Shown here piece by piece: positions 33,128 to 64,000 of a stretch of 64,000 nt of DNA; position 1 is the stretch's first letter; each line of letters starts with the position of its first letter. The position numbers and the translations under genes are program-made. The notes beneath the pieces were generated by a model. The model worked only from the letters and a program-made list of their open reading frames with translations. It had not been told where the DNA came from and searched no databases. This DNA is from Phytophthora colocasiae (Eukaryota; Oomycota; Peronosporomycetes; Peronosporales; Peronosporaceae): contig JAGKQI010000098.1 in assembly GCA_018806915.1 (NCBI GenBank), positions 124,001 through 188,000 of the forward strand, written 5' to 3'.

Positions 33128-36122
33128 ATGGACGACGACAGTGAGACGTCCAGTGTACGCAACCGTGGACAGCGGCACGGAACGTCTGTAGGGGAGTTGG
33201 ATGCTGCAAGCGAGACGTCGGCCTCACACATTCGGCCACAGCTGCGCTGCAACGCGTGTTGGGAGCCGATTCTTCCTGACGCGCAGTCGGCCGAGACGTG
33301 TTACCGGACGAGCTGCGGGCATTTGTTCTGCGTAAGCTGTGCTATGTATGTTTTGTTGAGTTCAGGGGCTTTACGGGCTAATACTGCTTCGGGATGTAGG
33401 AAAAATGCGCGTACAAACACTTCGGACAGGGAAGACTGCAGTGTCCTACCTGCAGCATCGGTATAAGGAGCCGCTACTTATGTTCATGAAAGGGCTGGAT
33501 AGTAAGATTGCTGATTTTTGATGCGTATGGTTGTAGATCTGAGTCAAGCGTGAGTATTTGCTCTTATGAACGCAGGGCATTTGGGATCTGTAGCTAACAT
33601 CATATTTTGTTTTATTTTATTCGAGAAGTCGAGGCGGAATTTCTGAGACGTAAGCATGCAAACGAAAAAGCAATGTTGTGTTACTTGAACTGGCTGCGTT
33701 GTAGGACAATTCGTGGTGTCTCTGATTCCAAGGTACGGGGAAGTTGTCTCGATTTCTGATGAAGTTACTACTAACAAGTGATAAATTTTTTTGAACAGAG
33801 AACAGAGGTGCTATGCTGCGGAAGTTTGGACCCTTTTGAGACTCTCAGCTCGTTGAGTGTGTGTAGGCAATTTGGGAAGAGATGATGGCAGATCCGTCGT
33901 CTTGTTTCGGTACGATATCGTAGTGAAGTACTTGGAAGTACTACAGTTAACTCATGTTGCTGAAATGAAGAACATTTCCAGCGAGCACTCGGTACGCCAA
34001 AGTTGGTTAGTAAAACAAATCGTTGAGCATTTACCAACTTTGTTTGCGTGACAGATTTTATACTGGTTTGTGCTGTATTCTGTGTTGTTTCCCCCACGGA
34101 TCGACCGTTGTAAAAAAATACTTTCCACTCGTAGTTTCAGCTGGCTCAAGATTCATTCAGGTAAGCGTGAAAGAGCTACTGGATGCGTTAGTTATTAAAA
34201 TGTTGTGGTTGCTGCCATCGTTTTGAGTAGGCAGGTGAGTATCGTGGTGAAATGTTTTGCTCCAGCGTTTCCAACAAACGTAAATTCGCTTTGATTGCAA
34301 TTGCCTTTATAGGAGGAAATCAGACGTCAACAAGGTTGGTAGTAGTAGCTTCTCACTAGTGCTCAAAATGTGGAAACTAATGTGAGCTATGACAGCGGAA
34401 GAGCAGAAAGCTTTTCAAATCCAGCATGGAGAAAAGTACATTCAACTGAAAAATTATACGGATCAACTAGAAGCGGAGCTACGGGAAACAAAGACTAAAA
34501 TGCAGGCCTTGACAACGTCGAATGAAGAACTTCGCGAGGTGAGTACTGCTTTGTAAATCCCAAAGGTTTAATATTCTGAACTGCTGTGCAGGCATACAAG
34601 GAAAAATCGCGAAAATGCCGGAACTGGGAAAAGATGGCAAGCTTCCGATTGCTGTACTTGGAGGGGGCTTTGCTGTCTGACTCGCGTTCGTTTTAGTGCA
34701 AGACTTTGAAAGCTCAGCCAAGTGTCAGGCAGTTTCCATCGCCAACACGCTCCACGATGGCACCAATGCACATGCAACAGCAAGAAGAACCTCACATTGC
34801 CCAACCCAGCCAATTTAGCCGCCCTTCAATGCGACCGCTTGCTAGGCCTTACCCGGGAGAAACACCAAACCCATCTATGCGGAACACCATGTTGAGCATG
34901 GGCAGACCGAAGACACCACGCCAAACTCAGAGACCGAATGTTGGCATTTTCGAGCGGTTTTCGAGGCCCCAGCTTGGTTCGTTGTAATTTTCTAAAATGC
35001 ACATTCCCCCCATTTAACAGAAATGTGAATGCAGGTGGGACTTCGCGGCCGCCAGTTCAGTCGTCAAGAACTCGGATCGTACGACCGAAAACCCCGCTTC
35101 AAGCCTCCCAACGGGTTGGGTTCCTCTCCAAAAGGTAAAATAGCCATAATTATGGGGTTAAACTCGCAGGCTAACAAATTCTTGGTAGGCCGACTTTCCA
35201 AATGTGAGTGGCTTACCGCGAACTCAGCTTGCATGAGATTGCATTTCGTGGTTGTGTTCATGTGAGTGGTTGGTCTAAAAAAAACACGAAAAGTGATAAT
35301 AAACAAAGCAAGCATTACCACCAAGAAGACTCACTGATGGCGAAACCAATCTACTCACCGGGCAGTGCGATTCAAAGGGCAAAACCACTATTTGAGCTGT
35401 CTGAAGTGGCAACTGAGGTCAGCTGCAAGCGTGGAAAGAAGCCCCCGCAAATAGTTCTTGCTTCCGCCAAGCCAGTCATTCCATTTGACTCCGAGACGAT
35501 ACTAAATTCTTCACGTGAAACTCGCCTTGGCGATAGCAGAAGTCAGATTGGTCTTGCAAGTTTGACATTCGAACTTGCCGGATTGCACGACTTCACCACT
35601 GAAACTATGACTGATGGGCATACAAAGCAAGGGGTGGAGCTGCAGACACGAAGCTGCAGTGACGATACAGTAATTCCTTTTACTAAAGACGAAGCAGTTA
35701 ATGGTGACGTAGCCACTCCGGTTTCACCACTCTCAAGCCGAATGTCAATTTCGCTGGCACCTTTAAAAACAACTCCGCATACAGCTCAAGTAAGTTAAGT
35801 CAAAGGAGCAACGCAATACTTGTTTAACGGCTCACATTTTTTTCAGAAAGCATCTCGATCTCCAGCGGTGCGTTCTTCTCGTGTTGTGCAGAAATACCAG
35901 TAACCCCTCGATTTCTAAGCACCATGACAAATCAAGTGTCTTACTTGTATGTGCTGGCAACTTGCTAGACTTCGTAATCCAGACGACTTGATTGCAGAAG
36001 CTAGTGAGCGAAGGCGGATTAAGTTTCCATTCGGGACGTGTTTAAAAAATCAAGATGACGTATTTTCGTTTAGCTCGTACAGCTTAACCCCTCGAGTACG
36101 GATGCTGCATAATGCAGCATAG
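33128..36122 (+). CDS. HEI10/RNF212/Zip3-like RING protein, many exons
   Basis: The first splice (33331 to 33400) builds a complete C3HC4 RING: CNACWEPILP ... SCGHLFCEKCAYKHFGQGRL then QCPTC. Short exons follow, reading VEAEFLRRQFVVSLIPR and AIWEEMMADPSSCF. A coiled coil (KYIQLKNYTDQLEAELRETK) and a long Ser/Pro/Arg-rich tail come next. This is the layout of the meiotic SUMO/ubiquitin E3 family HEI10/RNF212/Zip3, which marks crossover sites. One intron (34637-34696) appears to be GC-AG, and one exon (35189-35203) is only 15 nt. The last exon (35969 on) is cut by the TTAA insertion at 36088. The native end was at 47071; the present stop is at 36122. Exons at 33450-34320 are only partly resolved. 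Confidence 0.6.
36102..36120. promoter_or_regulatory. End-proximal palindrome of the first piggyBac
   Basis: ATGCTGCATAATGCAGCAT is a 19-bp palindrome overlapping the inner edge of the left end. GCTGCATAATGCA recurs exactly in the transposase intron (complement at 40414-40426). Related ATGCTGAAT/CTGCAT sequence occurs in intron 39137-39263, after the stop near 41652 and beside the right end (47003-47020). A transposase-binding site is the likely role. Confidence 0.6.
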
Positions 36123-36896
36123 CCTATCCACTTAAACTGAAAATATTCAGTTTAACCCTTCTAACCCGAGCCGTTATTCTGTATTCTACAGAATAAGCAA
36201 TTATCTTGATTAAAGTATGAACGATAACCTGCGAAAAGTATGCCGTTGGAAGCCCTTTCGTGCTCGGCGAGGCATATTCTGTACATAAAGTGTCAATGTA
36301 TCCAACATCTGCGAAACTGGCGATCTCCTGGCGGACAAAACATGTTCAAAACCTCTCACTCGGCAACCCCGTCAAATTTGAAACGACTCTGTACTGTGCG
36401 GCACTCTTGGCGCCAACCAACCATCCGCCAAAGCGCGCGAAGTGCAAAGCGCGCGAAGAGGAAGAATTTGCCCAGTTCTAACTAACGGAGTAGTGAGGAG
36501 GAACTGGGCAAATACTTCTCTGCAGGCTCCAGCAAGACCTACTGCAAAGTACGTGGTGCTAACTAGTTGTCCTTCTTATTCCTCGTCACGTTTGCGGAAT
36601 CTAATCATCTTTTAGGCTCGGTGGAATGCTCTTCCACCCGAGGTATCGTGCCATTTCTGATAGCACGTGAGCGTGAACGTGGCAGAGCGGTACACGACCG
36701 CCTAAACCATTGCTGACAGAAGGTGCTCAAAGGCGGAACGCACCTTACACAAGTACTGCCTGCGTTTGTTCTGCTTGGTGATCCGAGGTGTTCACTAACG
36801 TGTGCTTCTAGCGTGATATGACAAAACACCAGGTCCTCGGCGTTGATATGAGTCTAAAGTTGATTCTGCGCAGCGCCAGTAGCTGGATGTGTCGAA

Positions 36897-37229
36897 TTAT
36901 TCTGTAGCATCCCGACATACGGCTGTGGGAAATTCCCTGTGCGGGCAACATCCAGAATTAGTAAAGCACCACTCGAGTTATTCTGTAGCATCCTGACTTA
37001 CGGCTACGGGAAATTCCAATTAGTAAAGCACCACTCGAGTTATTCTGTAGCATCCTGACTTACGGCTACGGGAAATTCCAACATCCAGAACTAGTAAAGC
37101 ACCACTCGAGTTATTCTGTAGCATCCTGACTTACGGCTATGGGAAATTCCGTGTGCACACGCAACATCCAGAATTAGTAAAGCACCACTTGAGTTATTCT
37201 GTAGCATCCCGGCTTACGGCTGTGCTCCT
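36897..37229 (+). repeat. Tandem array of 62-83 bp units
   Basis: Five units start at 36897, 36978, 37040, 37111 and 37194. Each opens with TTATTCTGTAGCATCC, followed by a ctgacttacggctacggg-like block; the first four units also keep AGTAAAGCACCACTCGAG (or TTGAG) before the next copy. Unit lengths differ by small internal gaps. The TTATTCTGTAG core matches the palindrome at the ends of the nested element that carries the array. Confidence 0.85.
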
Positions 37230-37339
37230 CATTGTATGTGATCTATCCATACTCTGGGATATCGCAGAGATCACCTGTCAAGTCAAAGTTACTAGTTTCC
37301 GGAACGTTGTCATTTATTTCAGGTCTTCTACATCTTCTT

Positions 37340-38050
37340 CTACACTTTCCTCAAGTGGACCACCTCGTTGTCTGCCATAATGTCTTCTTCGTCGGCGTTG
37401 GAATCGGAATCGCTGACATCAGCGGTCTCCACGAGATTCACGTCATCGATAGCTGTAGAGCCAAACAGTCGCTCCTTTCGGAGCCTCTCCATGAAATTGT
37501 CGCTACCAAACACGTCCGAGTCGATGAGGCCGTCGGCTCCGTTTGGTTCATCGGTCTCGCTCTTTGCTTCTTCATCAGCAGCCATGCACTCACTTGAATC
37601 GAATTCTGGATCATCCGGAAAAAAAGGCATTGGTCGCGCCGTCTTGCTCCGTATCATCCGGTATAGCTGCTGGTAGTTCACCTGTAGCGCCCACCTCCTC
37701 TGTGTCGACAACTGTGGTGGCACAAAAATAAGGCCACTAACCTTCAAAGAAGTTTATGCCACGTCTGGCTTCGTCGAGACGGCCCTTCACCCCGGCTTCA
37801 CGTAGCGTTGATTCTAGGTCATCCCTGTCGGCTTACGAGCCTTCCAGCCTTCCTCGCAGATCTCGCGCCTGAACGGCATCTCTGCTGGGCCGTTCATTTT
37901 TCGAATGACAATGTGAGGTAGCTTCTGACACGTGAACCGATGGGCTTTCGACAGAATTTTCAAACCTGTTGGGGATTTATATGCGTCTTTCTATCCTCCT
38001 TGAATAATACCCGTCTATCATCCCATCGCCGATCTGTTAGGAAAGTGGAC
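37340..38050 (-). pseudogene. piggyBac transposase N-terminal fragment
   Basis: Reverse reading gives ICEEGWKARKPTGMT, NQRYVKPG and INFFEG, matching the N-terminal domain of the other piggyBac proteins here (KEKGWTRKPPPRRSLDDRYF; TGTEGVDYVRGE). An acidic region follows (FPDDPEFDSSECMAADEEAK, SDSDSNADEEDIMADNE). Stops and shifts break it and the catalytic domain is missing, so it is a deletion remnant within the nested element. Confidence 0.6.
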
Positions 38051-38346
38051 TGATCCAGACACCATACAATAATCTTCATGCGGAGTTTTGGAGCGCTGAT
38101 GAGTTTGCTGGATATTAAATCCTGTACAATATATTATTCTGTAGGATACAGAATACCGGGTTAGAGGGGTTAAGCAAATTTAGACTTAAAGTTTGTATTG
38201 GTGTCCTTTCCCCCGCCACAGTGGCATACAAACACCAAGTCAAGCACTTGTTTAGTTTCTGTACCTCTGTTGAAGTGTGCATCGACCAGGGTTTTTAGAA
38301 TTTTGAAATATAAATTCTCAACGAGTTCTGCGAAACTGCAACTGAT

Positions 38347-41300
38347 TTGCATTATGTTTTAGAGACACCGCGAGACGTGTGGTCCAACGGGCCCAACGTG
38401 TGGCTGGCAAGCTGCCGCTTTCACAAAAACTCCCTCATTCGAGAATTTACGCGGCCAGAGATCAAGTGGGGTATAGAGAGTATGGTAGTGCTGGACAGCG
38501 AGGTGACCGGGAAAGACCTCTCCTTCAAGTCCGTCTGGAAAGAGCTCAAGGAGAAAGGGTGGACGCGTAAGCCGCCACCACGCCGCAGCCTAGACGATCG
38601 CTACTTCTACATCCGTCCTGGCCGCAAAATAACGGGGACGGAAGGCGTTGACTACGTCCGCGGTGAGAGGGTTGTGTTGGAGTATTACGCTCTAGGTATG
38701 TTAAAATCAAAGCGGTATATACATATTTTCTAACCTATCGTGGTATTGGTACCAGTGCTGCGCAAGGAAGCTGGTGTTCCTCTCCACGGTCAAATAGCGC
38801 CTGCAGCTCCTTCAGCAGAACATGGTGACGCAGCAGCTCCTACCGTTACGCCTCCAGTTCAAGCGGCATTTTCTCCCGTGACTACGAACCAGTCACAAGC
38901 GGCAACAGACGCGACGCCACCTGTCACGACACCGCCACGTCGGGCACAGGGAAAGCGACGTACCCGTCGTTCCTTGATCCAAAGTCCTGTTGCGAGCACA
39001 CCACCACGGTCTCTGGTGGCGACATCACCTCATGTCCAAGACGTGGATACGGGGTCGGAATTCGACGATTCGGCTTCCATGGACACCGTCATACCTCCAA
39101 ACGATAGTGCAGCATCTGCAAGCGAATTCGAGAATGGTAAGCTGTATAATAAGCTGCATGTAATACTGAATTGTATGCTGTCTGCTATGCTGAATGCAAT
39201 GCTGCATGTTGGACTGAATTTTATACTGACTATTGTGTTGCATGTGATGTGGTGTCATGACAGACGATTCCGATGAAGATGGTGATCAAACCATCTCATT
39301 TGGGAGTGAGCTCCTGGCAGACAGCAGCGACGTGCTGAATGCAGTTCTTGACGGAGATGTCGGGTCACAATTTGGGGCAATGGAATCGGGCGATGAAGCA
39401 GAGAAGGATGACATTGAAATTGGAGAATACGGCTCGGATGAAGGCCCAGAAGCATTCTGTGTTCCGGACGATGTGTCCGATGATCTTGAAGCAACAGAAC
39501 AGCAGATTGCAGATGAAATGTTTTTCGCTAAGGATTTCCTGTCCAAATTTGGTGGAGAAGACGAGGTGTTGGCTGGAAACCTGAAGGATACCGTGTTGCG
39601 CGAGATGGGTACGGTTGGTTGGGAAGATATTGTCCAGCCCGACATCCACGAATATCTTATGAGCCCATATGAGCCGGTTAATGACACTAGAAGCTACCCG
39701 GGGTTGAGACAAGGTTACTCAGGTCCAAGTGCGGAAGTGTTGCGTCGAGGAGACTCGCCGGTTGCGCTATTTTTACTTCATGCCGGTAGTTCTGTGGCAG
39801 CATATTGCTGCCTGCTCAAATGAATATCACCGTGAGAAGTTGCCATTGCGAGTGGATGCCGCCTTCAGACGGTATCGAGCTAAACGAAGATTCAAATGAC
39901 AAGCTTCCCAAAAAGACAAGACAGGATATTGAACACGAACTGGAAGGAATGAAGCCTATATTGCCTCATGAACTCGGGCGGTTTATTGGCCTATTGATCG
40001 CTCGAGCTATAGCTCCCAACCGCGAAAAATTGACAAACCACTGGAAGACTACTGATGAAGGAGCGATTTCTCGAGGCTGCTTCGGATCGGTGCTAGCGCG
40101 TGACCGCTTTCTGGAAATTTCGCGCAATCTGCACTTCAATTCGAACGCAGACCCCAGATCACATACCGACAGAGCCTGGAAAATCAGAAAAGTGGTAGAA
40201 GTTCTCCAACGGACGTTCGTACGAGGCTATGTCGCTCCTGCTCACTTGGCTTTTGATGAGGCTATTCTGCCAAGTCGATCATCGTTCAACAAGATGCGTG
40301 TGTACCTAAAAGACAAGCCGCACAAGTGGGGCACAAAGCTCTTTATGCTTTGTAGTGCAGTCACTGCGTACTGCATCCGGTAAGTTTTTTTTGCAAGTTT
40401 CTTTTCACTACAGTGCATTATGCAGCTTTCGATCACTGACTGAAGAATTTTAAACTGAATATGATCCGGTTTGAGGTCTACTGCGGGAAGAAGGAACACT
40501 CAAGCGATGCGCACAACACTGACATGAAGTCTGGGCCGGCAGCAGTGGTTCGAAACCTACTGGAGGTTTTTGGTCGTGAGTCGAAGAAAGAAGGTATGCG
40601 GCTGGTCGTAATAGACCGATTTTATACATCCGTTGCGCTAGCTATACAGTTGCTGGTCATGGGTTTTACTGCGTTGGGACTATCATGACAAACCGGCTGA
40701 AGCTACAGCAAGTCTGTGATCGAGAAGAAGAAAACTCGTCCTGCAGAGATTGCACGCGGATCCTTCAAAGTGTCTAAGTCGAAGCACGTCCCCAGTATGG
40801 CGGCAATTAGCTGGTGGGACTCACGTCCCGTTCACTTCCTGTGCACTGGTGGAAGTCTTGAAATGGACCGCGTTGTTCGGCAGGATGGTGCAGCAGGTGG
40901 AAGTGGCGTGCCCCGTGTCGTGAAGGATTACCACGCCTTCATGGGAGGCGTGGACGTCCACGACCAGCTGCGTCTACAGCGCTACTCGCTCCAGCGAGCC
41001 CTGCGATTCAAAAAATACTACAAGTCGCTTGTGCTCGGGCTAATTGATGTGGCCATTGTGAACAGTTACATCGTTCACAAGGCTTTTCACAAGAACAAGA
41101 CCTCCAGCCCATTGAGCCACGTCAAGTACTTGAAGAAGCTGCATATGCAGCTTTGCAGCCTGGTGCCGGCGGACATGTACGAAGCTAACACATTCCGGTA
41201 CTCAGCGGCCACCTGAAACCGCTTCATACGAGCCAATTTCGACTGGGAGAAGCCAAACAACAGGTCACACGGCTCGCCAAGTTGATGAGTGGCGAAATGC

Positions 41301-41641
41301 GGATACTCAGGCAAAACGTCGACAAAGGACATGCAAGGTGTGCTCTGTGTTGCGCGCAGGAGTGCAGCGATGCGTCGACAACTTCATTTTTCTGCAGTGA
41401 GTGCAACACTACAGGCCCTATTTTCCTTTGTATGCGAGCGCGTCGCAAAGTGCGTGGAGTGGCAATGACGTGCTGGGATATCTGGCACAAGGAGTGGGCC
41501 GATGGAAAGCTTATCCCCGTTCAAAGCGGTAGGAGTATTCGAGTGCGACGCAAGGCCATACGTGCAACGCCAGGAACACCATCGTCTCCGGGCACGCCGA
41601 GCACTCCGGCTTCAAACAAAAGGCGCAGAACAAGTCCGTAG
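38347..41641 (+). pseudogene. piggyBac transposase, first copy, frameshifted
   Basis: Exons 38347-38695, 38756-39136 and 39264 onward join in phase over GT-AG introns. The N-terminal domain (KELKEKGWTRKPPPRRSLDD) is followed by acidic linkers, then the catalytic domain with all three Asp: LAFDEAILPSRSS, VVIDRFYTSVALAI and HAFMGGVDVHDQLRLQRYSL. A Cys-rich C-terminal finger follows (HARCALCCAQECSDASTTSF, then CSECN and MTCWDIWHKEW). Frameshifts lie near 39770, 39900, 40680, 40710 and 41215, and the intron after AYCIR (from 40381) has lost its AG acceptor. The copy is dead, but the layout is complete. Confidence 0.85.
40414..40426 (-). promoter_or_regulatory. End motif inside a transposase intron
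   Basis: TGCATTATGCAGC is the exact complement of 13 bases of the palindrome next to the element's left end (36105-36117). It lies in the intron that follows AYCIR. Confidence 0.6.
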
Positions 41642-41743
41642 GTGGTAAGCTGAATAATGACCTGCATATAACCTGTATTATTCGGTCTCTACATGATTAC
41701 ATTGCGTGGAGAAAATATAAAGAATACCGAACCAGGCCTGAAT

Positions 41744-41765
41744 AACACATAAAATTTTATGTGTT
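41744..41765. repeat. Perfect 22-bp palindrome
   Basis: AACACATAAAA is followed at once by its exact complement. It lies between the piggyBac transposase and the SET-domain gene and could mark a junction or a terminator-like hairpin. Confidence 0.75.
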
Positions 41766-41981
41766 TTCCTAAAAGGGACATTTGGCAGCGCTTTAGTCCG
41801 ATCTCAAGAGATCTCGGCGGAGCGGAGACAGGCTCAGTCAAACAGTGCGAACCACAGCCCCTGGCTGAGCCAGTGCTAGTGTACGAGAACATAATATTGT
41901 GTGTCCCAACAAGTATTGGTGTTTGCTAACATAATATGTGTTTTGTGTGTGTGGTGCATTCATTCCAGAAGCAGCTCAAGC

Positions 41982-43183
41982 ATGGCTAGTCCTGAGGTTG
42001 TCGATCTCGTGACGAGCAGCAGCGAGGAAGAGGCACCTGACACGTACCCCCCACCACCTGAAAGCGCAGCGCGTGAGCCAGCCACAGGACAGCCACACCA
42101 TCTCGATGAAGATGTCATCGATCTAACGGCAGGGGGCGATGGAGAAGCGAGGACTGGGCATGCAAGCGTCGACAATGACACTCAAAACACAAAGCTGTCA
42201 GTTGTAGCCGCCGAAACTGCGAACATCTCTACGTACAAAGGTCGTGAGACGAAGCATAAACAAATGAAGCGGAAGAACAATCCATGGACGAAGAAAATTT
42301 CACGGAAGCCATCTTACCAGGCTCGTCGGGCGACTACGCGTGATTCGCAACGCATCTATCACGCGAAAACAATGAAGACAAAGTTTATCCAGGCGTATTT
42401 AGCAATTCCAGGAGTTCGGGAAGCGTTGAAGGCATTGCGCGCCGAGCAAGAGGAAGAAACAAAACAACCAGCCGACGTAATCAGTGAAGCGTTTGGTCCG
42501 GATGTGGAGCCTGAGATTACGGGTATGGAGCAGGAGGAAGAATCTAAATCTGACACAGTGGCCTGGCCCGCTCAAGTGACGCATTCTCTCAAGCTTAAGA
42601 TCAAAGATGGAGTGGCTATCAAGGATAGCTGGCCGGCTGACAGATGCAGTTGTATCGCTAACTGCTTTCCAGACACCTGCATGAATGCCGCGCTACAAAG
42701 CTGTTCTGTGCCACCGACAACTGCATCTTCCATGGGCGCTGCTCAAATGGAGTTCACGAGTCCCATCGTGTGGAGTTATTCAAGTCGGCAATTGGCATCG
42801 GTGTTCGCGCCATTGAAGATATTCCAGTGGGGGCGACGATAGCCCCCTATACAGGATTGCTAACGGACCACAATTTTGACAAGGACATCCGCCAGTGGGA
42901 ATACGTCATCAGCCTCCAGACGAAAGGTTGTGGCAACAAGAAGCTGTTCATTGACGCGGAGGAATGGGGGACTGTTGCCCGCTTCATCAATCACTCGTGC
43001 GACCCTAACACGCTGTTTGTTGAGATGCGGCACAACAGAGACGTACACGTGATGGTTAAGACCACCACCAAGATTGCTGCAGGAGAAGAGATTACCGTGG
43101 ACTATGGAACAACGTGGTTCGAGCACGCCTGCACGACTCCCAAATGCCGTCAAACTCAAGTTTCGAGTGCTGATACTAGCTAA
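41982..43183 (+). pseudogene. Transposon-borne SET-domain protein
   Basis: Starts at ATG 41982 (MASPEVVDLVTSSSEEEAP). EVVDLVTSSSEEE and EDVIDLTAGG both fit SUMO-interacting motifs. A basic middle follows (HKQMKRKNNPWTKKISRKPS), then a Cys-rich pre-SET-like block (RCSCIANCFPDTC; LFCATDNCIFHGRCSN). The SET domain has GIGVRAIEDIPVGATIAPYT, RFINHSCDPN and GEEITVDYG, the cofactor and catalytic motifs of lysine methyltransferases, with a C-terminal HACTTPKCRQ. One lost base near 42700 shifts the frame between pre-SET and SET; otherwise both parts are open. It lies inside a piggyBac composite, so it may be captured cargo able to alter chromatin. Confidence 0.75.
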
Positions 43184-43780
43184 GCTTTCACTCTACCTTA
43201 ACTCAATTAGTAATAACTTTTATTTCAATGTGATTGAAGCCAAACCCGCACTCAGACTGCAATCTCCGTACCAACAGCATTTGAATGGTAATATGAATCG
43301 TAGCATTTACACGTATATTAAGAGTGAGAAGCCTCGAATTAGTTTCACATAATACAGAGAATAGAGATCCGTTATGAAGCCGCTTTTGCTTGCCCTGTGT
43401 TTGGTTTGAGTAACCTGCTCAGTAGAAACCCGCACACGGACAACACGTAGAGCATTTTGGTGCATTGAATGATATAGCGCGCTCACTCTTTAAATAAATA
43501 TTAAGAGTGAGAGGCTTGTGTATAACACTTCAAAAACGGTGACTGTACCAAATGTCATGTTACTGTACTCGAAGTGTATTCGTATTTAAACATGTGAGCA
43601 ACGGTATGTCTTTTCGTTTACTGTACTTCTTATAAAGTACAGTAAAATCGCAAAGAGTACCGTATTCATCTACCACTACCGTACTTCGCACTGTGATAAT
43701 TGTAGAGAGTACCGTATAGAGCTATCACGTACTGTGAATGGTTTTGCAGTACCGAAACGTGCCCAGAACCAATCCTTTAT
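43184..43780. other. Gene-free stretch with GTAC-rich repeats
   Basis: No gene is seen. From 43555 the sequence is dense in TACTGTA and GTACCGTA words in both orientations, including the hairpin at 43617-43646. It resembles a subterminal repeat region of a transposon, perhaps the MULE or the small ORF that follows. Confidence 0.45.
43617..43646. repeat. 12-bp stem hairpin
   Basis: TTTACTGTACTT, a 6-nt loop, then its exact complement. Several related GTACCGTA copies lie in the next 130 bp. Confidence 0.7.
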
Positions 43781-44278: not shown

Positions 44279-44519
44279 CACTAGGTTAAGGTTCTAGTGC
44301 GCAGGTTGCTGTTGGTAGAATGTCTCTAAGATTAATACAACATATCGTATTCAGAGCATTCCTTTTTGGTGTACATGAATTCCAGGGAATATTGCATATA
44401 CTTTAGGACGATTTAGAAGAAAACCGCACCCGCATGGTACTGATAGTCCCGTCGTAAATACCAAGATGCATATTCCTGCTTGATGAAAGCATTATCTACG
44501 GTGAGGAGCTACCGAACAA

Positions 44520-52180: not shown

Positions 52181-52234
52181 GGTGAGGTTCAGCCGTTTGC
52201 AGGTGCGGCTAGTAGTTCAACTTCAACTCAAGCT

Positions 52235-52457
52235 ATACAAAACTCAAGTATAAAAAAGTGTCTTATCCTTTTGACCAGGCTCAAAATCGGACTGTTGTAT
52301 TGAAAGTCACTCAATTTTTCTCCGATGAAGCTCAAATTTGATAGGCCCGATCAGCACGAAATACGCTTTTATTGGTGCAATTGGCGATAAGAAAGACAGC
52401 GGATTGGCTGAGAAAACCTAAAATTTATGGGGTGTCCTATCCTTTTGGCCAGGTCTG
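52235..52457 (-). repeat. Right long terminal inverted repeat
   Basis: Complement of the left arm, 223 bp, ending GGCCAGGTCTG before the TA duplication. Confidence 0.9.
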
Positions 52458-52544
52458 TAGCGTTGCTTGAATTGTATTGGGGTGCTATCTTTCTCGGTTA
52501 GCTAGTAGCTGACTCACTACCCACTTGCTTGACAACCCCTACAG

Positions 52545-53855: not shown

Positions 53856-54892
53856 CTTGTCTCCGTGCACGATCGAGGAAATTGGAGTCTGACCACGCAT
53901 CGGGGGCTGCTGGCGGTGGTGAAGTCCCATGCACGCAAATCGCAGTGGTAATCTTGCTTTCGTGCTGACGTCTGGGGCAAACTTGGTGGGTTTTTCGGCG
54001 CAAATTGCGCACAGCCAAGACGTTGCAGACGGTATCTGAAGACCTCCTGGTAGGAAAAGAGAAACGGATGGGGAAAATATGGTGACATATTTTGGGACAA
54101 CGTAAATTATTGCCGCCAAACGCAGCAGCCAAGTGTTGGAATGTCTACCAGTTGACAGTTGGGAAATTGCTGCACATGTCAGGGTGAAAGTTCCATTGAA
54201 ACACCCTGTGAACCACAGTGTGATCTTGGACAAATGAACAACATCTGCATCACATTCTCCATCTTCAGGGTCGAATATGTAAACACGATAGTTTACATCT
54301 CGCAAAACACTCTTATACATGTACATGTACCGGTCGAAGCATTCTTGGGCAAATCGACTGCTTGGTATACAAGCGAGGCGGATTACATTTTACGTTTACT
54401 GCGCTCCGAACTCTTCTTCTTCTTACCCTCCGAACTTCTTATGAGTAGTGATTTTTTCTAAACAAATATATAATACTATTTATTGATGGTAATACATTTC
54501 AGTACAACAGTATTATTTTTATTGCACTCGTATTTTTTTGCTCAATCATACTGTATGTCATACATATATATATATTTAATAAATAAAATTTGAATTTATT
54601 TTCACTTAAATAAACAGCTACAAATAAAAATAACCAAACAACATCAACAAAATGCCAATACCAAGCAGCAGCTTCATGCTTTTATTATGGTTTTCTTTTT
54701 AGTTATGCCAGCTTTAATTTTCAGCTTTTATTGGTGGGTAAATCTGCACAAATTTTTTTACATTTATGGTTACCTGATGCAACTTAGAAGTTGCTTGTTG
54801 TTGAGCGACAGGATCCAAGACGCTGTTCGTGTTAGTAATTGTTTAAAATATTCTACCAAGTGATATTTACAAATATCTTATATATATAAGTT
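53856..54892. other. Intergenic, very AT-rich in its second half
   Basis: 53856-54330 is upstream sequence and leader of the esterase gene. 54450-54890 is strongly AT-rich with TATATATATATA runs (54563 and 54890) and no gene. AT-rich islands like this are unusual next to the GC-balanced genes here. Confidence 0.5.
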
Positions 54893-55130
54893 CCTGAGGC
54901 TAGAAAGCACGTTGAAGAAGCTGCATGTGAGCCCCAAGAGTGCCAAGTGGCAGAGCTGCAACATGGAAGTTCACGCGGGCTTCTCGTTCGACTGGATGAA
55001 GAACTTCCAGCAGCTGGTGCCGCCCATGTTGGAGGCTGGTATCAGAGGACTTGTGTACGCTGGTGATGCGGACTTTATTGTAAACTGGATGGGGTGCAAG
55101 GCCTGGACGCTGGAGCTGCCGTGGACAAAT
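54893..55130 (+). pseudogene. Serine carboxypeptidase C-terminal fragment
   Basis: One clean frame reads FLRLESTLKKLHVSPKSAK, WQSCNMEVHAGFSFDWMKNF, LVPPMLEAGIRGLVYAGDAD and FIVNWMGCKAWTLELPW. This is the S10 serine carboxypeptidase (carboxypeptidase Y type) segment with the catalytic Asp in the GDADF motif. The signal peptide, catalytic Ser and final His parts are missing on both sides, so this is a gene fragment. It stops just before the left end of a mariner element, but the sequence beyond the mariner does not continue it. Confidence 0.8.
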
Positions 55131-55136
55131 ATCCTA

Positions 55137-57263
55137 CTTCTCCGGTCCACCGTACTATCGCCATTTCTAAAAAGTGGGCATAGCGGAAAAAGTTTTTAGA
55201 GTTAGCAAGCATGGCGCACACCATTAGAAAGCTGAAGGCGCAAGGTATGTGCCCCCGGACTTCCTGCTGAAACGGAGCCTTCGTTTGAATGGTAGAATAA
55301 CTTTTGTCTTGCGTCTGAGAGGAGCCGTAAGGTTAAATTTCGTAATTCGGTCAATTTTTAGCGATAATCAATCGCACTTTTACACGAGCGGTAGGAGCTA
55401 ATTGACTCCGTCCTGGCAAACCGATATTGTCTGTAAACGCTTCAATGGGCTAAAAATTGATCGCGCGCCAGCGAGGTTTTATTGCAGCATGGCACCTAGT
55501 TACCAAGCCAGCGGAATAAAATACGCCAATCATCGCGAAGTGAAGAATAAGACGGCGATTTATTTTTTTGAACCCTCAAATTAGACTGTAAGCTGTGATT
55601 GGCATAAGTGACGGTAGCCATTAGCAACTATGCTGTCTGCAACTGGCAACGCAATCGGTGACGTTCCGTTGCGCATGTGGAACTTCTGCACGCGTGGTAG
55701 GCTGTAGTCATTGCCCCCCTTGCACCCAATGACCAAACCTAGTACTTTTTGTAATGTCAAAAAGCACTTATCTAAAGTATGGTAGCTTACCTTAGCAAAT
55801 GAGGCCTTCACGGCAGCAATTAGGCCGTCGGTATCGAACGTGGGGGTCTTGTACTGCAAGGATTGTAGTGAATGAAAAAAACCGAGGTCTAGTACGTTCA
55901 TGTCGGGTGACCGGGGAGGCTGACACCATTTCGATATCCCAGCCCTCTGCCTGGCCTGCCTCGACGATGTCGGCGCTGTCAACTCGTACATGTGGACCAG
56001 CGTTGTCTTGCTGCACCTTAATTGTTCTTGTCTTTCTACCTGCAACATTCCAGCAACATCCCAGCAACAAGAGCAACATAGGAGTGACATTAGCTCATCC
56101 TGCAACATAGTAGCAACATAATAGCTTCAACTTCACTTACCGGGACATTTTTCCCTAATTGCAGGGAACACTTTCTCGCGCAGCAGCTTAATGTAGACTT
56201 CTCGTGTCATAGAGATGTTTTTGGTGATTGGATCTCCTTTCTCTCGGCTCTTCGACTTTCGCTTGGCCACGGTCCCCTCTACAATAGGCCAAATGCCTAT
56301 TTTACCATCGAAGTAGCGCTTTTTTCCAAAGTCGTAGCGAGGTCTGGCGACGGCACCCAGAAACATTACCTTTCCTATGTACCTTTTGTTCGGACACGAG
56401 CGGTACGGTACATCCTCGTCCTTCGCCAGGTAATACTTTGTATTGGCCTTGTAGAGGTTAAACCACTTCTCATCAAGATGTACGGTATCGTACATGTGGT
56501 GGGCACGAAACGTCTTCTCTCCTAGCAAAATAAAATCCTTGGTCAGCATAAAATCGTTTAAATAATAAAAGCCAAATGAATGACTTACCTATGTGGCGCT
56601 CAACGTGGGCCAGAGCCCATGACAGCCGTCGAGTCTTGTGCAGAGCTGACAGCGTAGGTCTGACACGGGTAATCTTTTTGCGAATCACGCTGCGCTTCAA
56701 GTAGCGCAACAGCGTTGTTTTAGGTATACCTGTAGCTGCAGCTAGCGAGCGCAAGCTCTGTCGTTGGCATAGAGGAATTTCGCGAACCCGCTCAACTACC
56801 TCGTCATCAGTGAGGTGGCGGGGTGGTGGCGGGCGCTGCTGTCGACCATGTAGCCGCTCGGTAATGGCGTGGCTTTGCTGCCACACCTTGCGGATTGTGT
56901 GACGGTGTAGGCCAAAGCCTGCGGCAGCTGCGGCAATACTGCCACGTGGGAGGCAGCCACCAACCGATCGCTGCGCAAGATATAGCGCTACGGCCACCTT
57001 AAGGTCGGTCTGGTTTCGACGGCGAGGCATGCTGGCGTTGTTTGTGAAGTCCAGGGTGAAAGGAATAGTGAATTGAGTTTAGTGTTGGCGGCAACGCCGA
57101 CAGCAGTGGTTGGCGACAGTGAAAGCGCGCGAAAAGTTATGCATGTCAAAGCTTCAGATTAGGCGCCAAACAAAAACAGCAAGACAAGTTATTTTTTACC
57201 AATCAAATACTGCTAACAATTTTGGTGAGCCACACAAAAATGGTCCACCGTGGACCGGAGAAG
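55137..57263. mobile_element. Plant-type mariner-like element
   Basis: 2127 bp flanked by TA (55135-55136 and 57264-57265), with short inverted ends CTTCTCCGGTCCACCGT on the left and the complement of CTTCTCCGGTCCACGGT on the right. It carries one reverse transposase gene with introns. Confidence 0.8.
55581..57030 (-). pseudogene. Mariner transposase (plant-type), near-intact
   Basis: Exons 56589-57030, 56141-56521 and 55581-56039 join in phase over GTAAGT introns of 67 and 101 nt. The N-terminal helix-turn-helix part (FGLHRHTIRKVWQQSHAITE; LRSLAAATGIPKTTLLRYLK) precedes the catalytic domain. That domain has YDTVHLDEKWFNLYKANTKY (first Asp), TIKVQQDNAGPHVRV (second Asp, made after the second splice) and PPRSPDMNVLDLGFFHSLQS (third Asp), the DD39D pattern of plant mariners such as Soymar. 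A one-base shift near 55915, between QQDNAGPH and SPDMNVLD, is the only break seen. The second intron has five ATGTTGC copies. Confidence 0.85.
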
Positions 57264-57448
57264 TATTAGGGCCGGTCTTAGCGGAATTTGTTCCAGTGGA
57301 TGCCCCTATCGGTGGACAGCACCTTTTCTGCTTGGTTTTGCTAGGAACAAGTTTGAAGTTAGTGGACGGCTCGAGTGGATCAGTCAAGAGGCGGGAGGGG
57401 GGAAATCTCTATCGCCAGCGAGTTTATTTATAGCAACTAGGTCCCACT

Positions 57449-57860
57449 TTGCTTTCGCCCCACAAAGTGCTCATGCTATCGACCCGTGATCTAATCCGCA
57501 TCGCACGACGCAACCGTGCTCGACACAACGCACAGCTCGGAGTGCTTCTAGTTGCACTTCTTCAGCGCTCTCGTAGAGCACGTGTTTCACGTCGACGTGT
57601 CGACGTTGATGCTGAAATCGAGATGTTGCTCAACGAAAACATGTTCGAGCGAACGTTTCGGATGAATGCCGAGAGCTTTTCATGCTTGCTGGGTATTCTG
57701 TTGTCACGGCTTGAGGTAGACGAGCTTCGTTCAACCAACTCGAGTGGAGAAGATCCCATCTCAGCTCCAATTATGCTCATGACTACCCTGCGCTATCTCG
57801 CCGGAGGATCATACCTTGATATCCGCCGTACCGTTGGAATTAGTAGGTATGATCATGGGA
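57449..57860 (+). pseudogene. Harbinger-like transposase N-terminal fragment
   Basis: One open frame reads MLLNENMFERTFRMNAESFS, CLLGILLSRLEVDELRSTNS and APIMLMTTLRYLAGGSYLDI, then RRTVGISR. The FRM-x-x-x-(S/T)F and LMTTLRYLAGG patterns are those of PIF/Harbinger transposase N-terminal regions. The frame is lost after 57860 and there is no catalytic part before the piggyBac element at 58161, so it is a fragment. It differs from the Harbinger near 5200. Confidence 0.6.
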
Positions 57861-58542
57861 GCTCGTCCTTGTCTTGCTAAAGATACGATTCTATCCCATC
57901 GATAGCTATACCGTTGAAGTGGCACACCTCATGAGGTGGGTCATCCCTCCGGCCACTCTCCGTCCACGTCCACTACCCCTAATTTTGCGCTGTGGACGTG
58001 GATCTGATTCCAACAAGCGGACACCTGTGGCGTCCACCAACATCTGCAAGGACGAGATTCTATTGGGCCCCAGGAGGCAAATCCACCGTTATTTTTTTTG
58101 CTAAGACCGACCCTTAGTATCATCAAACTGTTTAAAACATGCTTTCTAATGCATGTTTAACCCCTTGTCTACCGAAATTCATGACACCAAACACGTAACT
58201 CACGGTACTTTTACGTCATAACTTACCCCATTGCAAGATACTTGGCTTTAATATGGCGTACATAGCCACATGCGGGAAGCTGTATAAGTTCTCAACCGGT
58301 TTTCTCAAATCATGTCGTCTATCATACGACGTACCAGACTTCGCAAGACTTGCAATGTCGTAAGTTGTTTCATTGCATAAAAAAACGATGAACATAACAG
58401 CGCAATGAATCGCACGACAACACAATAGATAGTAAAGAACAAGCAGCAAATCAAGAACAAGTTTCATTTTGTCCTGCATAGGCAGTGCCAACGGGAAACA
58501 CTCATCAAAGACGACTTCAGCGCAGTTGCGCGAACCCACCAG

Positions 58543-61317
58543 TCACGCCTCGCCACTTTTGCATTCCTCATCATCAGCGTCTCCATTGTGGAGCTCGAGT
58601 TCGCGGCGGGTCTTCTTTCGCTTGCCAGCTTCCTGTCCTGGTCTACGAAGCACAACTTTTTTGCCCAGTGTCGCTGGAATACTTTGACCGCAGTCAAAGT
58701 CTTCATGCCATATCGCGAAGCACGTTTTTGCTTCACCTTTATAGCTGTGCCGGATCTTGTTGCAAAGCCAGCATTTTGCAGCATCAAGGGAGCAGCGCTC
58801 GCAAAAGAAGGTCGTGGCGAAAGACTTCTTCTTCCGGTCTGTTCTCAACAGAGCACAAACTTTGCAGGAGCGCTGGCGACGCTTCTGTACGCCACTCACC
58901 GTGACCCAGTCATCGGATTGCTCAGGGGCGTGTGAAAGGCGAACTGGGTGTGCGTCTGCGCTTCTGGGTGTAGGTAGGTGGCGTCACGACCACTCCGGCG
59001 AAGTCATCGGCTTTCACCTGCAGTAGCTGGTTCTGTAGCACGGCATACCATTCTCCTCGTGTCATAGCCGCCGTACCTGCGAGCCGCGCCGTCTCCTTGT
59101 GCGAGATGAAGGCGTTCACTAGAGCAAGATCAACAAAGCCCAGAAACAAGCACTTGTAGTATTTCTTGAACCTCGTTGAAGTTTGCAGTGAGAACGCTTG
59201 AAGGCGGAGTTGATCATGCACATCAACTCCGCCCATCCAGCGTTGGTAGTCGGTCACAGCTTCCGGACACGGTACAGTTATCGAGCCTTCGCCTTTGACA
59301 TTTCGCTTGATAGTGCTTCCCGCCATCGTCGAGCCCGTGCACAAGTAGTGCACGGGTTTGCTGTCAAACCAATGAAATGCTACCATGCTGGGAACATCCA
59401 CGGAGCGAGTAAAGGTGAAGGTGCCTCTTGGGATGCTTTGGGGGCAAGTCTTGCGCGTCGACTTCACATTCTTGTCGAAACCAAGTCTGTCGGTCATGAC
59501 AGTTCCAAGCATGTACACACTCATGCCGAGAAGTTCCACAGCCAGCAAAATCGAAGAGTAGAATCTATCGATGACGATAAGATGCCATTGCCGCCGCGAA
59601 GTCGACTCGAAAACGGTCTTCAGGTTTCGAACGACGGCTGCAGCACCTGTCTTGTGGTCGAATGAGAAGTCACCTTCATCTCCCGCGTGCGTTTCCCGGC
59701 ATACATCTCAAATCTGGAGTAAGTTACGACATAATTGAAATAGAACATACCTGTGGCAATATGCCGTTCTTGAATCACACAGCATGAACATTTTAGAACC
59801 GTAGCGGTGCGGCTTATCGGGCATGTACATACGCGTAGTGTTACGTCTCGAAGTGGAAGGCAAAACACCTTCGTCAAAAGAAAAAACACCAGGAAGAGAC
59901 CATCCAGCCAGAAAACGCTGCTGTAACTTTGTGATGACAGGCCGAAGTTTCCACAGCTTGTCCCGTGTCCGTTCCGCTTCGTTATCAACGAAGTGCAAGT
60001 CACGGAGAATGTCCTGACACCTGTTCCGACCCATAAACCGACCAAAAGTCCCTGCAGGTATAGCACCATTCTCGGACATTGACCAGTGATCCGCAAAAGC
60101 TGCGCTTTTGTGGGCACATCATCCGCGCGACGAGAAGGCCTATCACGTGCAAGATTTCATGAGTCTGGTAAGCCGGCGACGATTTCAAGCGCCGGCGAAT
60201 CTTGACAATAGTCTCGGGTTGGAGCTGACTACTTCCGCGGCCACGGCCTTCTTGTCTCGCCAGTGTAGCCTGCGCGCGCCGCTCCATTTGTTGTTGGTTG
60301 TACCGGTTGGTCTCGTCATTTATCAAGACCCACAATGACTTGGGCATAAAGTAGAAGAAGCTCAGTAACGGGGAGTGGCAAAGACTACGCAACTCAAGCG
60401 TCGGCTGGGCTTCTTCCATAGCTAGGCCAGGGTAAGGAGAACCTCCTTCTTCAAAACTCGACGACGGAGGCGTCCAGACCATCGTACGTAGCACGGCCGC
60501 GCGCTCCTTGACTCCGTTCGAAGTGAGTCTGTCCGTTCCTATTTGAAGAGACGCGACAAAAGCTTCGTCTAAATGCACCGCATCTTGTTCCGACACAACG
60601 TCGTCATCGTGCATTGGTGTCTTCATCCCCCTCAATACCGCCTTCACCATCACTTTCACCAGAGCTAAAGCTCACGTAGGTATCCAGGTCCTCGTCTTCA
60701 GATACAAAGTTCACGTCTTTCTTGACGGAAACCCGCGGCCGTAGCACTCGGTCGGTCGTCGGAAGTGGGATATTTGCCGGTGTGTCATCACTTTCGGGCC
60801 CTGAGGCCTCTGATAGTAGCTGTAAGCTTGTAGCGGCGCTCCTTTCCGACTCCTCACCTTGTATATCGCTAGGCGACAAATCAAACGCACGGGCAACAGC
60901 AGCCTGTGAAAGGTCGACTTCTAAGTCGCTAGACTCGCCAAACAAATTATCCAGTGTGCCCTGCGAGAGTTGAGCACTCGTGTCGATCTGGGACGCACGA
61001 ACCCCATCAGCTTCCACGTCGATACCAGCACTGCCGACCTCTTCTTGTGCTTCCTCGTCGCTCTCGGCCTCTTCGTTGCCATCGACATCTTTCAGCAGCC
61101 CCGATTCCACTACATAAGCGACAACAGCATCCTCTCCAACAAAACATTTACCACCCTCTGGACTCACGTACGACCACTCCGTCTGGATTCCGCTTGGCCG
61201 CTTCGCAGTCCACCCAACGCCAAGCAGTTGCCGCGACAAATGTCGAAAATCGATGTCTCGGGCGACAGCTTTGACAGCAGCGGTTTTTCCACGTGCGCTT
61301 GACCGGATCCTCGCCAT
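58543..61317 (-). pseudogene. piggyBac transposase, second copy, lightly frameshifted
   Basis: ATG at 61317 (MARIRSSARGKTAAVKAVAR). The N-terminal piggyBac domain (LSRQLLGVGWTAKRPSGIQT; GKCFVGEDAVVAYV) and a long acidic region precede the catalytic domain, which keeps all three Asp: VFSFDEGVLPSTSRR, HLIVIDRFYSSILLAV and RWMGGVDVHDQLRLQAFSLQ. The C-terminal Cys-rich finger (SCKVCALL, FFCERCSLDAAKCWLCNKIR, CFAIWHEDF) is complete. Single-base shifts lie near 60620, 60070, 59690 and 58910. A 37-nt intron (59715-59751) splits R-F/E at the same place as in the other two copies. Few lesions suggest recent activity. Confidence 0.85.
59715..59751 (-). promoter_or_regulatory. 37-nt intron made largely of the end motif
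   Basis: The intron joins AYCHR to FEMYAG in phase. It contains TATGTCGTAACTTACTCC, 15 of 18 bases identical to TACGTCATAACTTACCCC beside the element's left end (58212-58229). The motif's complement begins with the donor-like GTAAGTTACGAC. Confidence 0.65.
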
Positions 61318-61705
61318 CGAGCAAATTCTGGAATGACTGGCAGGCTGCCAGTGTCGGCGTGGGCGGTTTGCGCGTATCGCATTCCCGCACACGCCGTATC
61401 TCCTTCCCGCACCCTAACCGCGCCCTATTTCTAACTCTGCCAGTTAGACCTTTCGCATCTTATTTTTCTTTTTTGACTTAGCTACAGTATGGCCCGAGCC
61501 ATTTCCTATTGTCAAGCGCTCTATGGCGTAAGTTATGACGTACGGATTTTGCTATGGCGTATCTTACGACGTCGGTAGACAAGGGGTTAACTAAAATCCA
61601 ACGAAGTAAGTTGTTTACCGCTGCTGTAAACTTTATGGATGACTTACAATAATTATTTGCTATCTGCAAGTCATTACGGTTATTTGTTAACCCCTTACTT
61701 CCCGT

Positions 61706-61724
61706 ATGTTGTACCGTACAACAT
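61706..61724. promoter_or_regulatory. End-proximal palindrome of the third piggyBac
   Basis: ATGTTGTACCGTACAACAT is followed by AAG. ATGTTG and AACATAAG recur in each transposase intron of this element: 62633-62711 (twice AACATAAG), the stretch before 63150, and 63853-63964 (CTTATGTTGG, AACATAC). Confidence 0.6.
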
Positions 61725-61929
61725 AAGAGGGGTGTCGGTGCATTTCTTCCCGCTGCAGCGTCTCTACTATGTTGTACGGTACATCATAATGGAGTTTGCA
61801 TCTTGATGTTTCTATGGAGCACATCCCATGAAAACCATATACTAAATTCAAGACGATCGTGTGCGTTTAAGCCGGGACGATGCACAGGTTTAGGTATCAG
61901 TGAATCACGTCGGCGAATAAAGATGAGCC

Positions 61930-64000
61930 ATGCCGATCGTGTGGCTGACACTGCGACTGCGCTCATTTCGAGATTCCCCGAAAGAGACGCAAGTGATGGT
62001 GCCGCCACGAGGGAAGACACCGCCTGGACGCACGCCACAACAACCACGTGCAGACCGAGATGTCCTGGCAAGTCTCAGCGACCGCCACCGCTGTCGTCTG
62101 CAGCGAGAGGAGGCCAAGCGCACCAGTGCTGCACCTGAGGGTACGGAGGATAACATGGTATACAGGCAGAAAATCCTAATGAATGTGGTGTGATCGACGT
62201 AGATCTAGTAGAAGAGTGCCGCTTGTCAGCTAGTGCAGAGGCCAATAATAATACCTCAGAACTGAGTGGACCCACGATGAAGAAGGCAGCCAAGTACTGT
62301 GCGAAGTTGATGACGCCGGACATGGAGAAAAGCAGCCGGACACCCCTCGCACCTGTGTGGACACCAACGTTTCTGAGGCCAAGGACGCTGATCAAACGGA
62401 AGAGCCTGAAGCTATGGAGACGGCGATGTTCAACGAGACTACGCTTACGCATCGAACGAAGTCTATGGCGGATGTGGTTGCGCATGATGAGTCGGCGATG
62501 CCATCTCAACAGCGATCAGTCCCTTCCGCCGTGCATCCTCGCAGTTTGGGCAAGAGGAAGTGCCCAACGCCGCCATCGAACAGAGGGCGAGCACGAGAGC
62601 TTCCGCAGGAAGACGACGAATACGATGATAAGGTATGTTATGTTGTCGCCATCCAACATAAGTGGCGTGGTATTTGTGTGTAAGCTAACATAAGATCCAT
62701 CATATGTGCAGAACGAGGCCGACGGCATCTCAGTCGACCATAGAGAAGGCGGTGCTATTGATCTCGAGGAAGATACTGGCATCTCGGATGATGGTAGTCG
62801 CGAGGACGAGCCGGGACAGTATGAGATACCCGTTTGTGTCGTGGATGGCGATCCAAACCTGATGCGCGACGGAGCTCGTCAGTGTACAGGCCTGAACTCT
62901 GATGTCGACTCGGATGGTGGCGATGATGACGAGGATGAATGGGAGGATGATTGGCAACTGGGAGATTTGTCGGATGAGGAGGCAGATCCTGTACCTGTGG
63001 AGTTGCCGGACTCACTCTGTAGCTCTGTTGCCAAGAATGCTGCGGGTCTCCGAGAGATGAAGCGATCGGGCTGGGAGTATGGTACGCTGCGCTTCCACAT
63101 GACGCTAGATTACCTACATAAGCTAAAATTATGTTTGTGTGTATGTTGTCAGACCCCAAACGATTCGGCCCTGATCCAACGTACGCCGGGCTGTACGATG
63201 GCCCATATGGACCATCCCAAAGTGTCCTCTCGGTGGCGGAAGATCCTTTGGCTCTCTTCTTTTATTTTCTGCCGCCCAAACTATGGGCCCAGATTGCCGT
63301 GGAGAGTAACCGTTACCACACTCAATCCATTCCTGGACGAGCGCGCCGCATTCGATCTCAGAAACGCGAAAAAGGGGGAGAACCTGAGAGCTATGGAGAC
63401 GTTCGCCGGTGACTTGCGCACGTGCAACCTATCGAGTCATGGGAGATTTTGAGGTTGTTGGGTCTGCTGATTTCACGGATGCTAGCACCCATGAGAAAGG
63501 GTATTGCCGCGCATTGGGCAGTGACACACCTAGGGGCGCTGCCGGTGAATCAATTTGGGAAGTTTATGTCTCGCAATCGATTCTTTCACATCCTGGGAAG
63601 TCTTCACTTCTCTAACAACAAGTCGCCGCAGGCCGATACAGATCGAGCATGGAAGATTCGCCCTGTTGTGGACGTACTTCAGCGCACATTCGCCAGAGGA
63701 TACAAGGTGCCTCCTGTGATTAGTTTTGATGAAGCTACACTGCCGTCCCGTTCACGGTACAACCCCACAAGACAGTACAACAAGGATAAACCCCAAAAGT
63801 GGGGGACGAAGGTGTTTGTGGCGGCGTGTGCAGATACTGCGTATTGTATGAGGTAAGTCACCTCGTGTGCCCGTGCCGAGCTGAAGCTCGGGCTTATGTA
63901 AGTCCTTATGTTGGATCGGAACCATCATAAGACTCACAAATTGTTGTTTTTGTCAACATACTAGACTCGAAGTCTACTGTGGTGCAAAATCTCACCTCCG
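61930..64000 (+). pseudogene. piggyBac transposase, third copy, partial
   Basis: The N-terminal part is scattered over frames (61930-62193 and 62357-62632). An intron 62633-62711 joins DDEYDDK to NEADGISVDHREGGAIDLEE in phase. A strongly acidic region follows (SDVDSDGGDDDEDEWEDDWQ), then KRSGWEYGTLRFH and, after another intron, DPLALFFYFLPPKLWAQIAV. A single in-frame TGA at 63410 sits in an otherwise open frame (GDVRR, stop, LAHVQPIESWEILRLLGLLI). The first catalytic Asp is present (VISFDEATLPSRSR). The intron 63853-63964 joins AYCMR to LEVYCGAKSHL. The rest of the catalytic domain and the Cys finger lie outside the window. Confidence 0.8.

What the first reader, a model, noticed from the sequence alone, without database searches (positions are those of the whole stretch)
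36088..64000. Each piggyBac carries its own end motif inside the introns of its transposase gene
Three piggyBac elements have different palindromic or inverted motifs beside their ends: ATGCTGCATAATGCAGCAT; ACGTCATAACTTAC; ATGTTGTACCGTACAACAT. In each element the same motif, not that of the others, recurs in the transposase introns: 40414-40426 and 39137-39263 in the first, 59715-59751 in the second, 62633-62711 and 63853-63964 in the third. The intron after AYCxR lies at the same protein position in all three, so the position is old while the sequence follows the element ends. Either transposase-binding sites are maintained in introns (self-repression, splicing control or dosage sensing), or the introns are continually rewritten by end-derived sequence. 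I know of no described example.
Basis: partly seen in the sequence, partly recalled or inferred. Interest (0 to 1): 0.88.

Follow-up and report, generated by a model that had tools for sequence, protein, structure and literature searches.

The report
piggyBac end motifs inside transposase introns
In this Phytophthora-like genome, families of piggyBac jumping genes repeat the DNA word that marks their own ends inside introns of their own transposase gene, and the intron word differs between families in step with the ends, which suggests a built-in self-control site.

Summary
The window lies in a 92.5 Mb genome with at least 150 related piggyBac exons. Over 35 representatives in seven groups, the AYCxR intron shares 8-base words with its own ends over 19.7% of its length, against 3.5% for ends of other groups. 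Only the true labelling of the groups reaches this (1 of 5040); exon segments and shuffled introns show no preference at that word length. 40 of 45 distinct introns are assigned to the right group with the locus's own end left out. Within group B subfamily variants follow too, and the motif core is conserved while the rest of the intron drifts. Other introns carry it, in either orientation, but one C/D intron lacks it, so splicing does not need it. In groups A and F a T run of 7-12 ends exactly 16 bp before the first copy, though the 16 bp differ. Best reading: transposase-binding DNA sites kept by selection, probably restraining the element. Binding and effect are inferred. In the window alone, the E2 intron and the E1 39137-39263 intron are not convincing.

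The parts
36084..36120 (+). E1 (group A) 5' end: TTAA and end palindrome ATGCTGCATAATGCAGCAT (36102-36120)
   Evidence: sequence; matching 3' end in relative L033/L105
38695..38754 (+). E1 upstream intron; 8-mers of own ends in 16 of 60 bp, but group D ends match it better
39137..39263 (+). E1 intron with repeated half-motifs such as ATGCTGCAT, GCTATGCTGAAT; equivocal against shuffles
40380..40468 (+). E1 AYCxR intron with TGCATTATGCAGC (40414-40426) and TTAAACTGAATAT (40450-40462)
58157..58226 (-). E2 (group B) 3' end: TTAA and end motif ACGTCATAACTTAC (58213-58226)
59715..59751 (-). E2 AYCxR intron, reduced to 37 bp, one motif copy ATGTCGTAACTTAC; relatives have 76 bp with two copies
61528..61590 (-). 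E2 5' end: two end palindromes and TTAA (61587-61590)
61687..61787 (+). E3 (group C) 5' end: TTAA, ATGTTGTACCGTACAACAT (61706-61724) and second copy (61769-61787)
   Evidence: relative L118
62633..62711 (+). E3 first intron with TTATGTTGT, CAACATAAG, AACATAAGA
63082..63152 (+). E3 second intron with GTATGTTGT before the acceptor
   Evidence: scored from 63084
63853..63964 (+). E3 AYCxR intron with CTTATGTTG...CATCATAAG and CAACATAC

Best explanation
The motif beside the ends is the recognition site of that family's transposase (most likely of its C-terminal zinc domain), and each family keeps more copies of this site in introns of its own transposase gene. The sites are read as double-stranded DNA. 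When transposase is plentiful it occupies them and restrains the element, by hindering transcription through its gene or by drawing transposase away from productive pairing of the ends. Shown: presence, group specificity, conservation, fixed placement in the AYCxR intron, recurrence at other introns in either orientation, a motif-free intron in the same genes. Inferred: that the transposase binds there, that the effect is restraint, and by which route.
For: Own ends 0.197 v. other groups 0.035; 1 of 5040 group relabellings; exon segments 0.028 v. 0.024 and shuffled introns 0.029 v. 0.037 at 8-mers. 40 of 45 distinct introns assigned to their group with the locus's own end left out. Group B subfamily variants follow their own ends: 0.938 v. 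0.893, 115 of 50000 relabellings as high. In 12 group-B intron clusters the core keeps 1.77 and 1.64 bits per base, flanks 0.54 and 0.48. Extra introns: 9 of 13 assigned to their own group, 11 of 13 with at most 15 of 300 shuffles as high; the C/D mid intron is at background in 4 of 4. Orientation is reversed in the C-terminal introns of L061 and L064. Palindromes: 71 of 96 pairs complementary in introns v. 97 of 112 in ends, only 6 of 25 intron deviations are G-T. A palindromic internal repeat is the zinc-domain site in Trichoplusia piggyBac (PMC7351741, passages); an extra internal transposase site lowers piggyBat transposition (PMC11707139, passages and Discussion part 1).
Against: No binding or expression data. 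At 8-mers own ends are hardly better than ends of sister subfamilies (0.197 v. 0.190). 5 of 45 introns are misassigned. A laxer measure put own ends first in four of seven groups only. At 9-mers the one set of shuffled introns leaned to own ends as well (0.021 v. 0.010, 132 of 5040 group relabellings as high). In group-B clusters the last copy always starts 17-19 nt before the acceptor, which a splicing role would also predict. Other 3' non-coding DNA shows a weak own-end excess (0.052 v. 0.033, 263 of 20000).
Confidence: 0.6

Rival explanations
1. RNA-level control: transposase, or pairing with the same motif in a read-through leader, acts on the pre-mRNA near the branch point and acceptor and controls splicing of the AYCxR intron, so that a truncated protein is made.
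For: The last motif copy lies between branch point and acceptor (17-19 nt before the intron end in 12 of 12 group-B clusters). Retention of a transposase intron controls the P element (PMC7776569, passages).
Against: One intron of the same C/D genes has no motif; orientation is not fixed; intron palindromes are poorer than those of the ends and few deviations are G-T (12 intron palindromes, small numbers); folding of group B introns is mostly unremarkable.
Confidence: 0.15
2. Pure cis role in transposition: internal sites help or inhibit assembly of the ends and lie in introns because exons are constrained; there is no effect on gene expression.
For: piggyBat's third internal site inhibits transposition. 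Some elements also have copies in 3' non-coding DNA.
Against: Excess is much stronger in introns than in 3' non-coding DNA of the same 21 elements (0.166 v. 0.052); fixed T-run-to-site distance points to a transcript-related function.
Confidence: 0.15
3. Introns are rewritten by conversion from the element's ends.
For: Would make introns follow ends, even at subfamily level.
Against: Matches stop at the motif; spacing and placement in introns differ from the ends; often one half-site only.
Confidence: 0.05
4. A host factor or general intron signal that happens to resemble the ends.
For: None direct; the reader of the motif is not identified.
Against: The motif differs between families of one genome and follows the transposase groups.
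Confidence: 0.05

Closest known systems
Trichoplusia ni piggyBac palindromic 19-bp internal repeat bound by the cysteine-rich domain dimer (PMC7351741, passages seen)
   Same: Palindromic motif beside the element ends of a piggyBac transposon
   Different: Described at the ends; the passages seen do not speak of introns
piggyBat internal inhibitory transposase site (PMC11707139, passages and Discussion part 1 seen)
   Same: An additional internal transposase site that limits the element
   Different: One subterminal site at the left end; here several sites in introns, matched family by family
P element control by retention of the third intron (PMC7776569, passages seen)
   Same: An intron of a transposase gene used for self-limitation
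   Different: There exon sequence, host RNA-binding proteins and piRNAs act; intron copies of the end motif are not mentioned in the passages seen
Maize Spm/En TnpA sites (recalled, not looked up)
   Same: Self-control through end-type binding sites
   Different: Sites near promoter and ends as recalled, not in introns
Introner elements (recalled)
   Same: Introns linked to DNA transposons
   Different: Those introns are inserted elements; here old intron positions carry short motif copies without element borders

Membership tests
piggyBac superfamily | DDE_Tnp_1_7 transposase | tested here: met
   4 of 5 window exon frames above the Pfam cut-off; piggyBat chain E 2.6e-6
piggyBac superfamily | Inverted ends starting at TTAA | tested here: met
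   E2 has TTAACCCCTTGTCTACCGA at both ends; TTAA-bounded ends in relatives
piggyBac superfamily | C-terminal zinc domain | tested here: inconclusive
   zf-Tnp_2 22.6 bits in the E2 frame, cut-off 24
Internal inhibitory transposase site (piggyBat type) | Extra copies of the end motif inside the element | tested here: met
Internal inhibitory transposase site (piggyBat type) | Bound by the transposase and lowers transposition | not testable with these tools
   needs binding and transposition assays
Splicing-regulated transposase intron (P-element type) | Retained-intron mRNA with a repressor product | not testable with these tools
   no RNA data
Introner element | Element ends or target duplications at the intron borders | tested here: not met
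   The introns printed run GT..AG without TTAA borders, at one shared protein position

The most novel reading that the evidence does not exclude
The introns are a transposase-operated feedback switch: transposase binds its own intron sites on DNA and stops the polymerase, so that full-length transposase is made only while transposase is scarce. In groups A and F a T run of varying length ends exactly 16 bp before the first site although the 16 bp differ, and in group D and L062 12-14 bp before it; in D, F and L062 a GC-rich hairpin stands before the T run. This resembles a pause or terminator in front of a bound roadblock. The switch's target co-evolves with the ends.
Probability: 0.25. Interest if true: 0.93.

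Novelty: new variant of a known kind. Interest (0 to 1): 0.8.

Why it matters
If true, these DNA transposons carry a dosage sensor in their introns. How DNA transposons limit themselves is an old question, and here it becomes testable in seven family groups of one genome. The data are also a natural series of matched protein and site pairs for learning how piggyBac zinc domains read DNA, and they let recognition sites of uncharacterised families be predicted from introns.

Tried and rejected
A lax measure (10 of 12 bases against pooled group ends) was too permissive and confounded by unequal sets: own ends came first in A, B, E, G but not in C, D, F. I replaced it by exact words with exon, shuffle and relabelling controls (one shuffle set per word length) and by a per-end average without the locus's own end.

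RNA hairpins as the reason for the motif: little support. That count rests on 12 intron palindromes (A 2, D 1, E 9). Introner origin: not met. Relatives in viral contigs: 15 pattern matches, none confirmed. Helical phasing of copies: suggestive only, not used. Print: no description of end motifs in transposase introns in searches (open-licence PMC; listings seen, three papers opened in part); subscription papers are not covered.

Rows dropped or odd: representatives were chosen by hand where both an intron and an end had been found; loci without an identified end (such as L062, L063, L071, L083, L086, L089, L090) were scored only. One search used 87 of 89 introns (L001 and L085 left out), merged to 45; for loci that are not representatives, ends of close relatives stayed in. 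In one search three of 92 loci (L031, L042, L051) had no acceptor by the pattern. The 21 'distinct' group-B introns include near copies, and one row (L026) was anchored wrongly; one search recounts with 12 clusters, L001 left out. Hairpin covariation used 4 of 5 group-F sequences because MAFFT misplaced a loop gap in L071; one of its five measures (further pair types) was not above shuffles (292/500). In one search the pattern search missed the L064 hairpin, seen in the fold. In some searches only one of ten 5' windows held the element end. For the ten E1-type copies L032-L041 the motif start was named by eye.

Full report
What was checked. The window is G000:C100:124001-188000 of a 92.5 Mb, 105-contig genome. 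The best named relatives of an E2-type transposase exon are Phytophthora proteins (P. palmivora, P. fragariae, P. cinnamomi and others; Pythium and Nothophytophthora occur lower down), so the host is Phytophthora-like; I did not determine the species. Four of five window exon frames match DDE_Tnp_1_7, and one matches piggyBat and, weakly, piggyBac among solved structures. End motifs and intron words are real. On the window alone the evidence is mixed: three of seven introns are above all 500 shuffles at 8-mers, four are weaker.

Relatives. Three searches with the exon before AYCxR gave 577, 655 and 668 first-look candidates, about 150 scored in each. I hold 138 stretches. The GT..AG intron after AYCxR was found with an acceptor in 89 of 92 loci. 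A tree of 36 transposase pieces gives groups B, C, F and G as supported branches; D is one too once L062 is counted with C, where it falls; for A and E one origin is neither shown nor excluded. End motifs: A ATGCTGCATAATGCAGCAT; B ATGTCGTAAGTTACGACAT; C ATGTTGTACCGTACAACAT; D ACATGTTGTATATAC(A/T)ACATGT; E ATTCTGTATAATACAGAATAA; F CTTGTATGGTCC; G ATAATCCGGA.

For 35 representatives the part of the AYCxR intron covered by 8-mers of the element's own ends (up to about 154 bp each, one or two ends) is 0.197; with ends of other subfamilies of the same group 0.190; with ends of other groups 0.035. Exon segments give 0.028 v. 0.024, shuffled introns 0.029 v. 0.037. One of 5040 group relabellings (the true one) and 0 of 20000 representative relabellings reach the observed value; 7-mers and 9-mers agree, but at 9-mers the single shuffle set also leaned to own ends (0.021 v. 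0.010; 132 of 5040). With the locus's own end left out, 40 of 45 distinct introns (from 87) go to the right group of seven: A 7/8, B 9/10, C 3/3, D 5/5, E 7/7, F 3/5, G 6/7. In 21 elements 3' non-coding DNA just inside the end shows 0.052 v. 0.033 (263 of 20000), their introns 0.166 v. 0.036 (0 of 20000).

Finer coupling. In group B half-site variants appear in ends and introns of the same subfamily, for example AAGTCG in intron L133 and its end L134, ATGTCATAA or ACGTCATAA in L010, GGCGTA in L015. Over nine subfamilies own 0.938 v. other 0.893, 115 of 50000 relabellings as high; 807 and 288 of 50000 for the other two lengths. In 12 clusters of group-B introns (from 39; over 20% apart) two copies lie 39-42 bp apart, the last starts 17-19 nt before the intron end, and the core keeps 1.77 and 1.64 bits per base against 0.54 and 0.48 in flanks.

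Not an intron necessity, and not one intron only. The C-terminal intron of groups C and D, the LQR-YS intron of F and N-terminal introns of E3 carry the motif: 9 of 13 extra introns go to their own group and 11 of 13 have at most 15 of 300 shuffles as high (exceptions L065 69/300, E1 39137-39263 102/300). Three of four LQR-YS introns and E1 38695-38754 match another group better. Another intron of the same C/D genes is at background in 4 of 4. In AYCxR introns of C and D the half-site ATGTTG stands in sense, in the C-terminal introns of L061 and L064 reversed. A word that splicing does not need, in either orientation, at several intron positions, that follows the ends, is best explained as a DNA site for the protein that reads the ends.

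A fixed T run. In group A, 25 of 28 introns have a T run of 7-10, and in F 5 of 5 one of 8-12; in each of these 30 it ends exactly 16 bp before the first motif copy, although the 16 bp fall into 13 different sequences. In D and L062 (7 of 7) the distance is 12-14 bp. In the 12 introns of D, F and L062 a hairpin precedes the T run; in four group-F sequences 6 of 9 pairs change on both sides and 94.4% of cells pair. Groups E and G have no T run of six or more (14 introns). Proteins bound to DNA that stop a polymerase behind a T-rich stretch are known from yeast (Reb1; recalled, listing seen, not read).

Mechanism. The palindromic internal repeat of Trichoplusia piggyBac is bound by a dimer of the cysteine-rich domain; an extra internal site restrains piggyBat. 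I propose that intron copies are transposase-binding sites that restrain the element, through transcription of its gene or through unproductive complexes. This step is inferred. Splicing control is the main rival because of the place of the last copy.

Limits. One genome; no other oomycete DNA was open to me, and viral contigs gave nothing. Group F ends were recovered poorly. Families were grouped by me from motif and sequence, then checked with the tree. No RNA or binding data.

Verdict. Searches showed no description of it.

Noticed in passing
AYCxR introns of L062-L066, L089, L090, L068, L071, L072, L083, L088: GC-rich hairpin followed by 7-12 T, terminator-like, before the first motif copy; compensatory changes in group F.
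   Followed up: partly
introns of C, D, F (e.g. L072) and 3' ends L105, L107-L110, L092: A box AAGT stands a few bases before the motif in many introns and also before the palindrome in several 3' ends (ATACAAACATCAAGTCTAATTATGCTG), as if the introns copied a two-part end signal.
   Followed up: partly
36152-38173: A second TTAA-bounded element with a group-E-like end motif (TTATTCTGTATTCTACAGAATAA) lies inside E1; it holds tandem repeats beginning TTATTCTGTAGCATCC at about 36900-37220.
   Followed up: no
41138-41151: Perfect palindrome GCTGCATATGCAGC of the end-motif type inside the coding exon of E1; present in L031, L033, L039, not found by the pattern in L042, L044, L047, L048, L050, L057, L082 exons.
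   Followed up: partly
L066 oriented positions 950-1120: The C-terminal intron of L066 is enlarged (172 bp) and holds several tandem-like copies of the motif.
   Followed up: no
L082 oriented 1314-1354; L092 oriented 1416-1475; window 58349-58366: Further end-motif copies in what looks like 3' untranslated DNA.
   Followed up: no
L135: Group-B intron in which the stretch from motif 1 through the branch point is duplicated in tandem, giving an extra motif copy.
   Followed up: no
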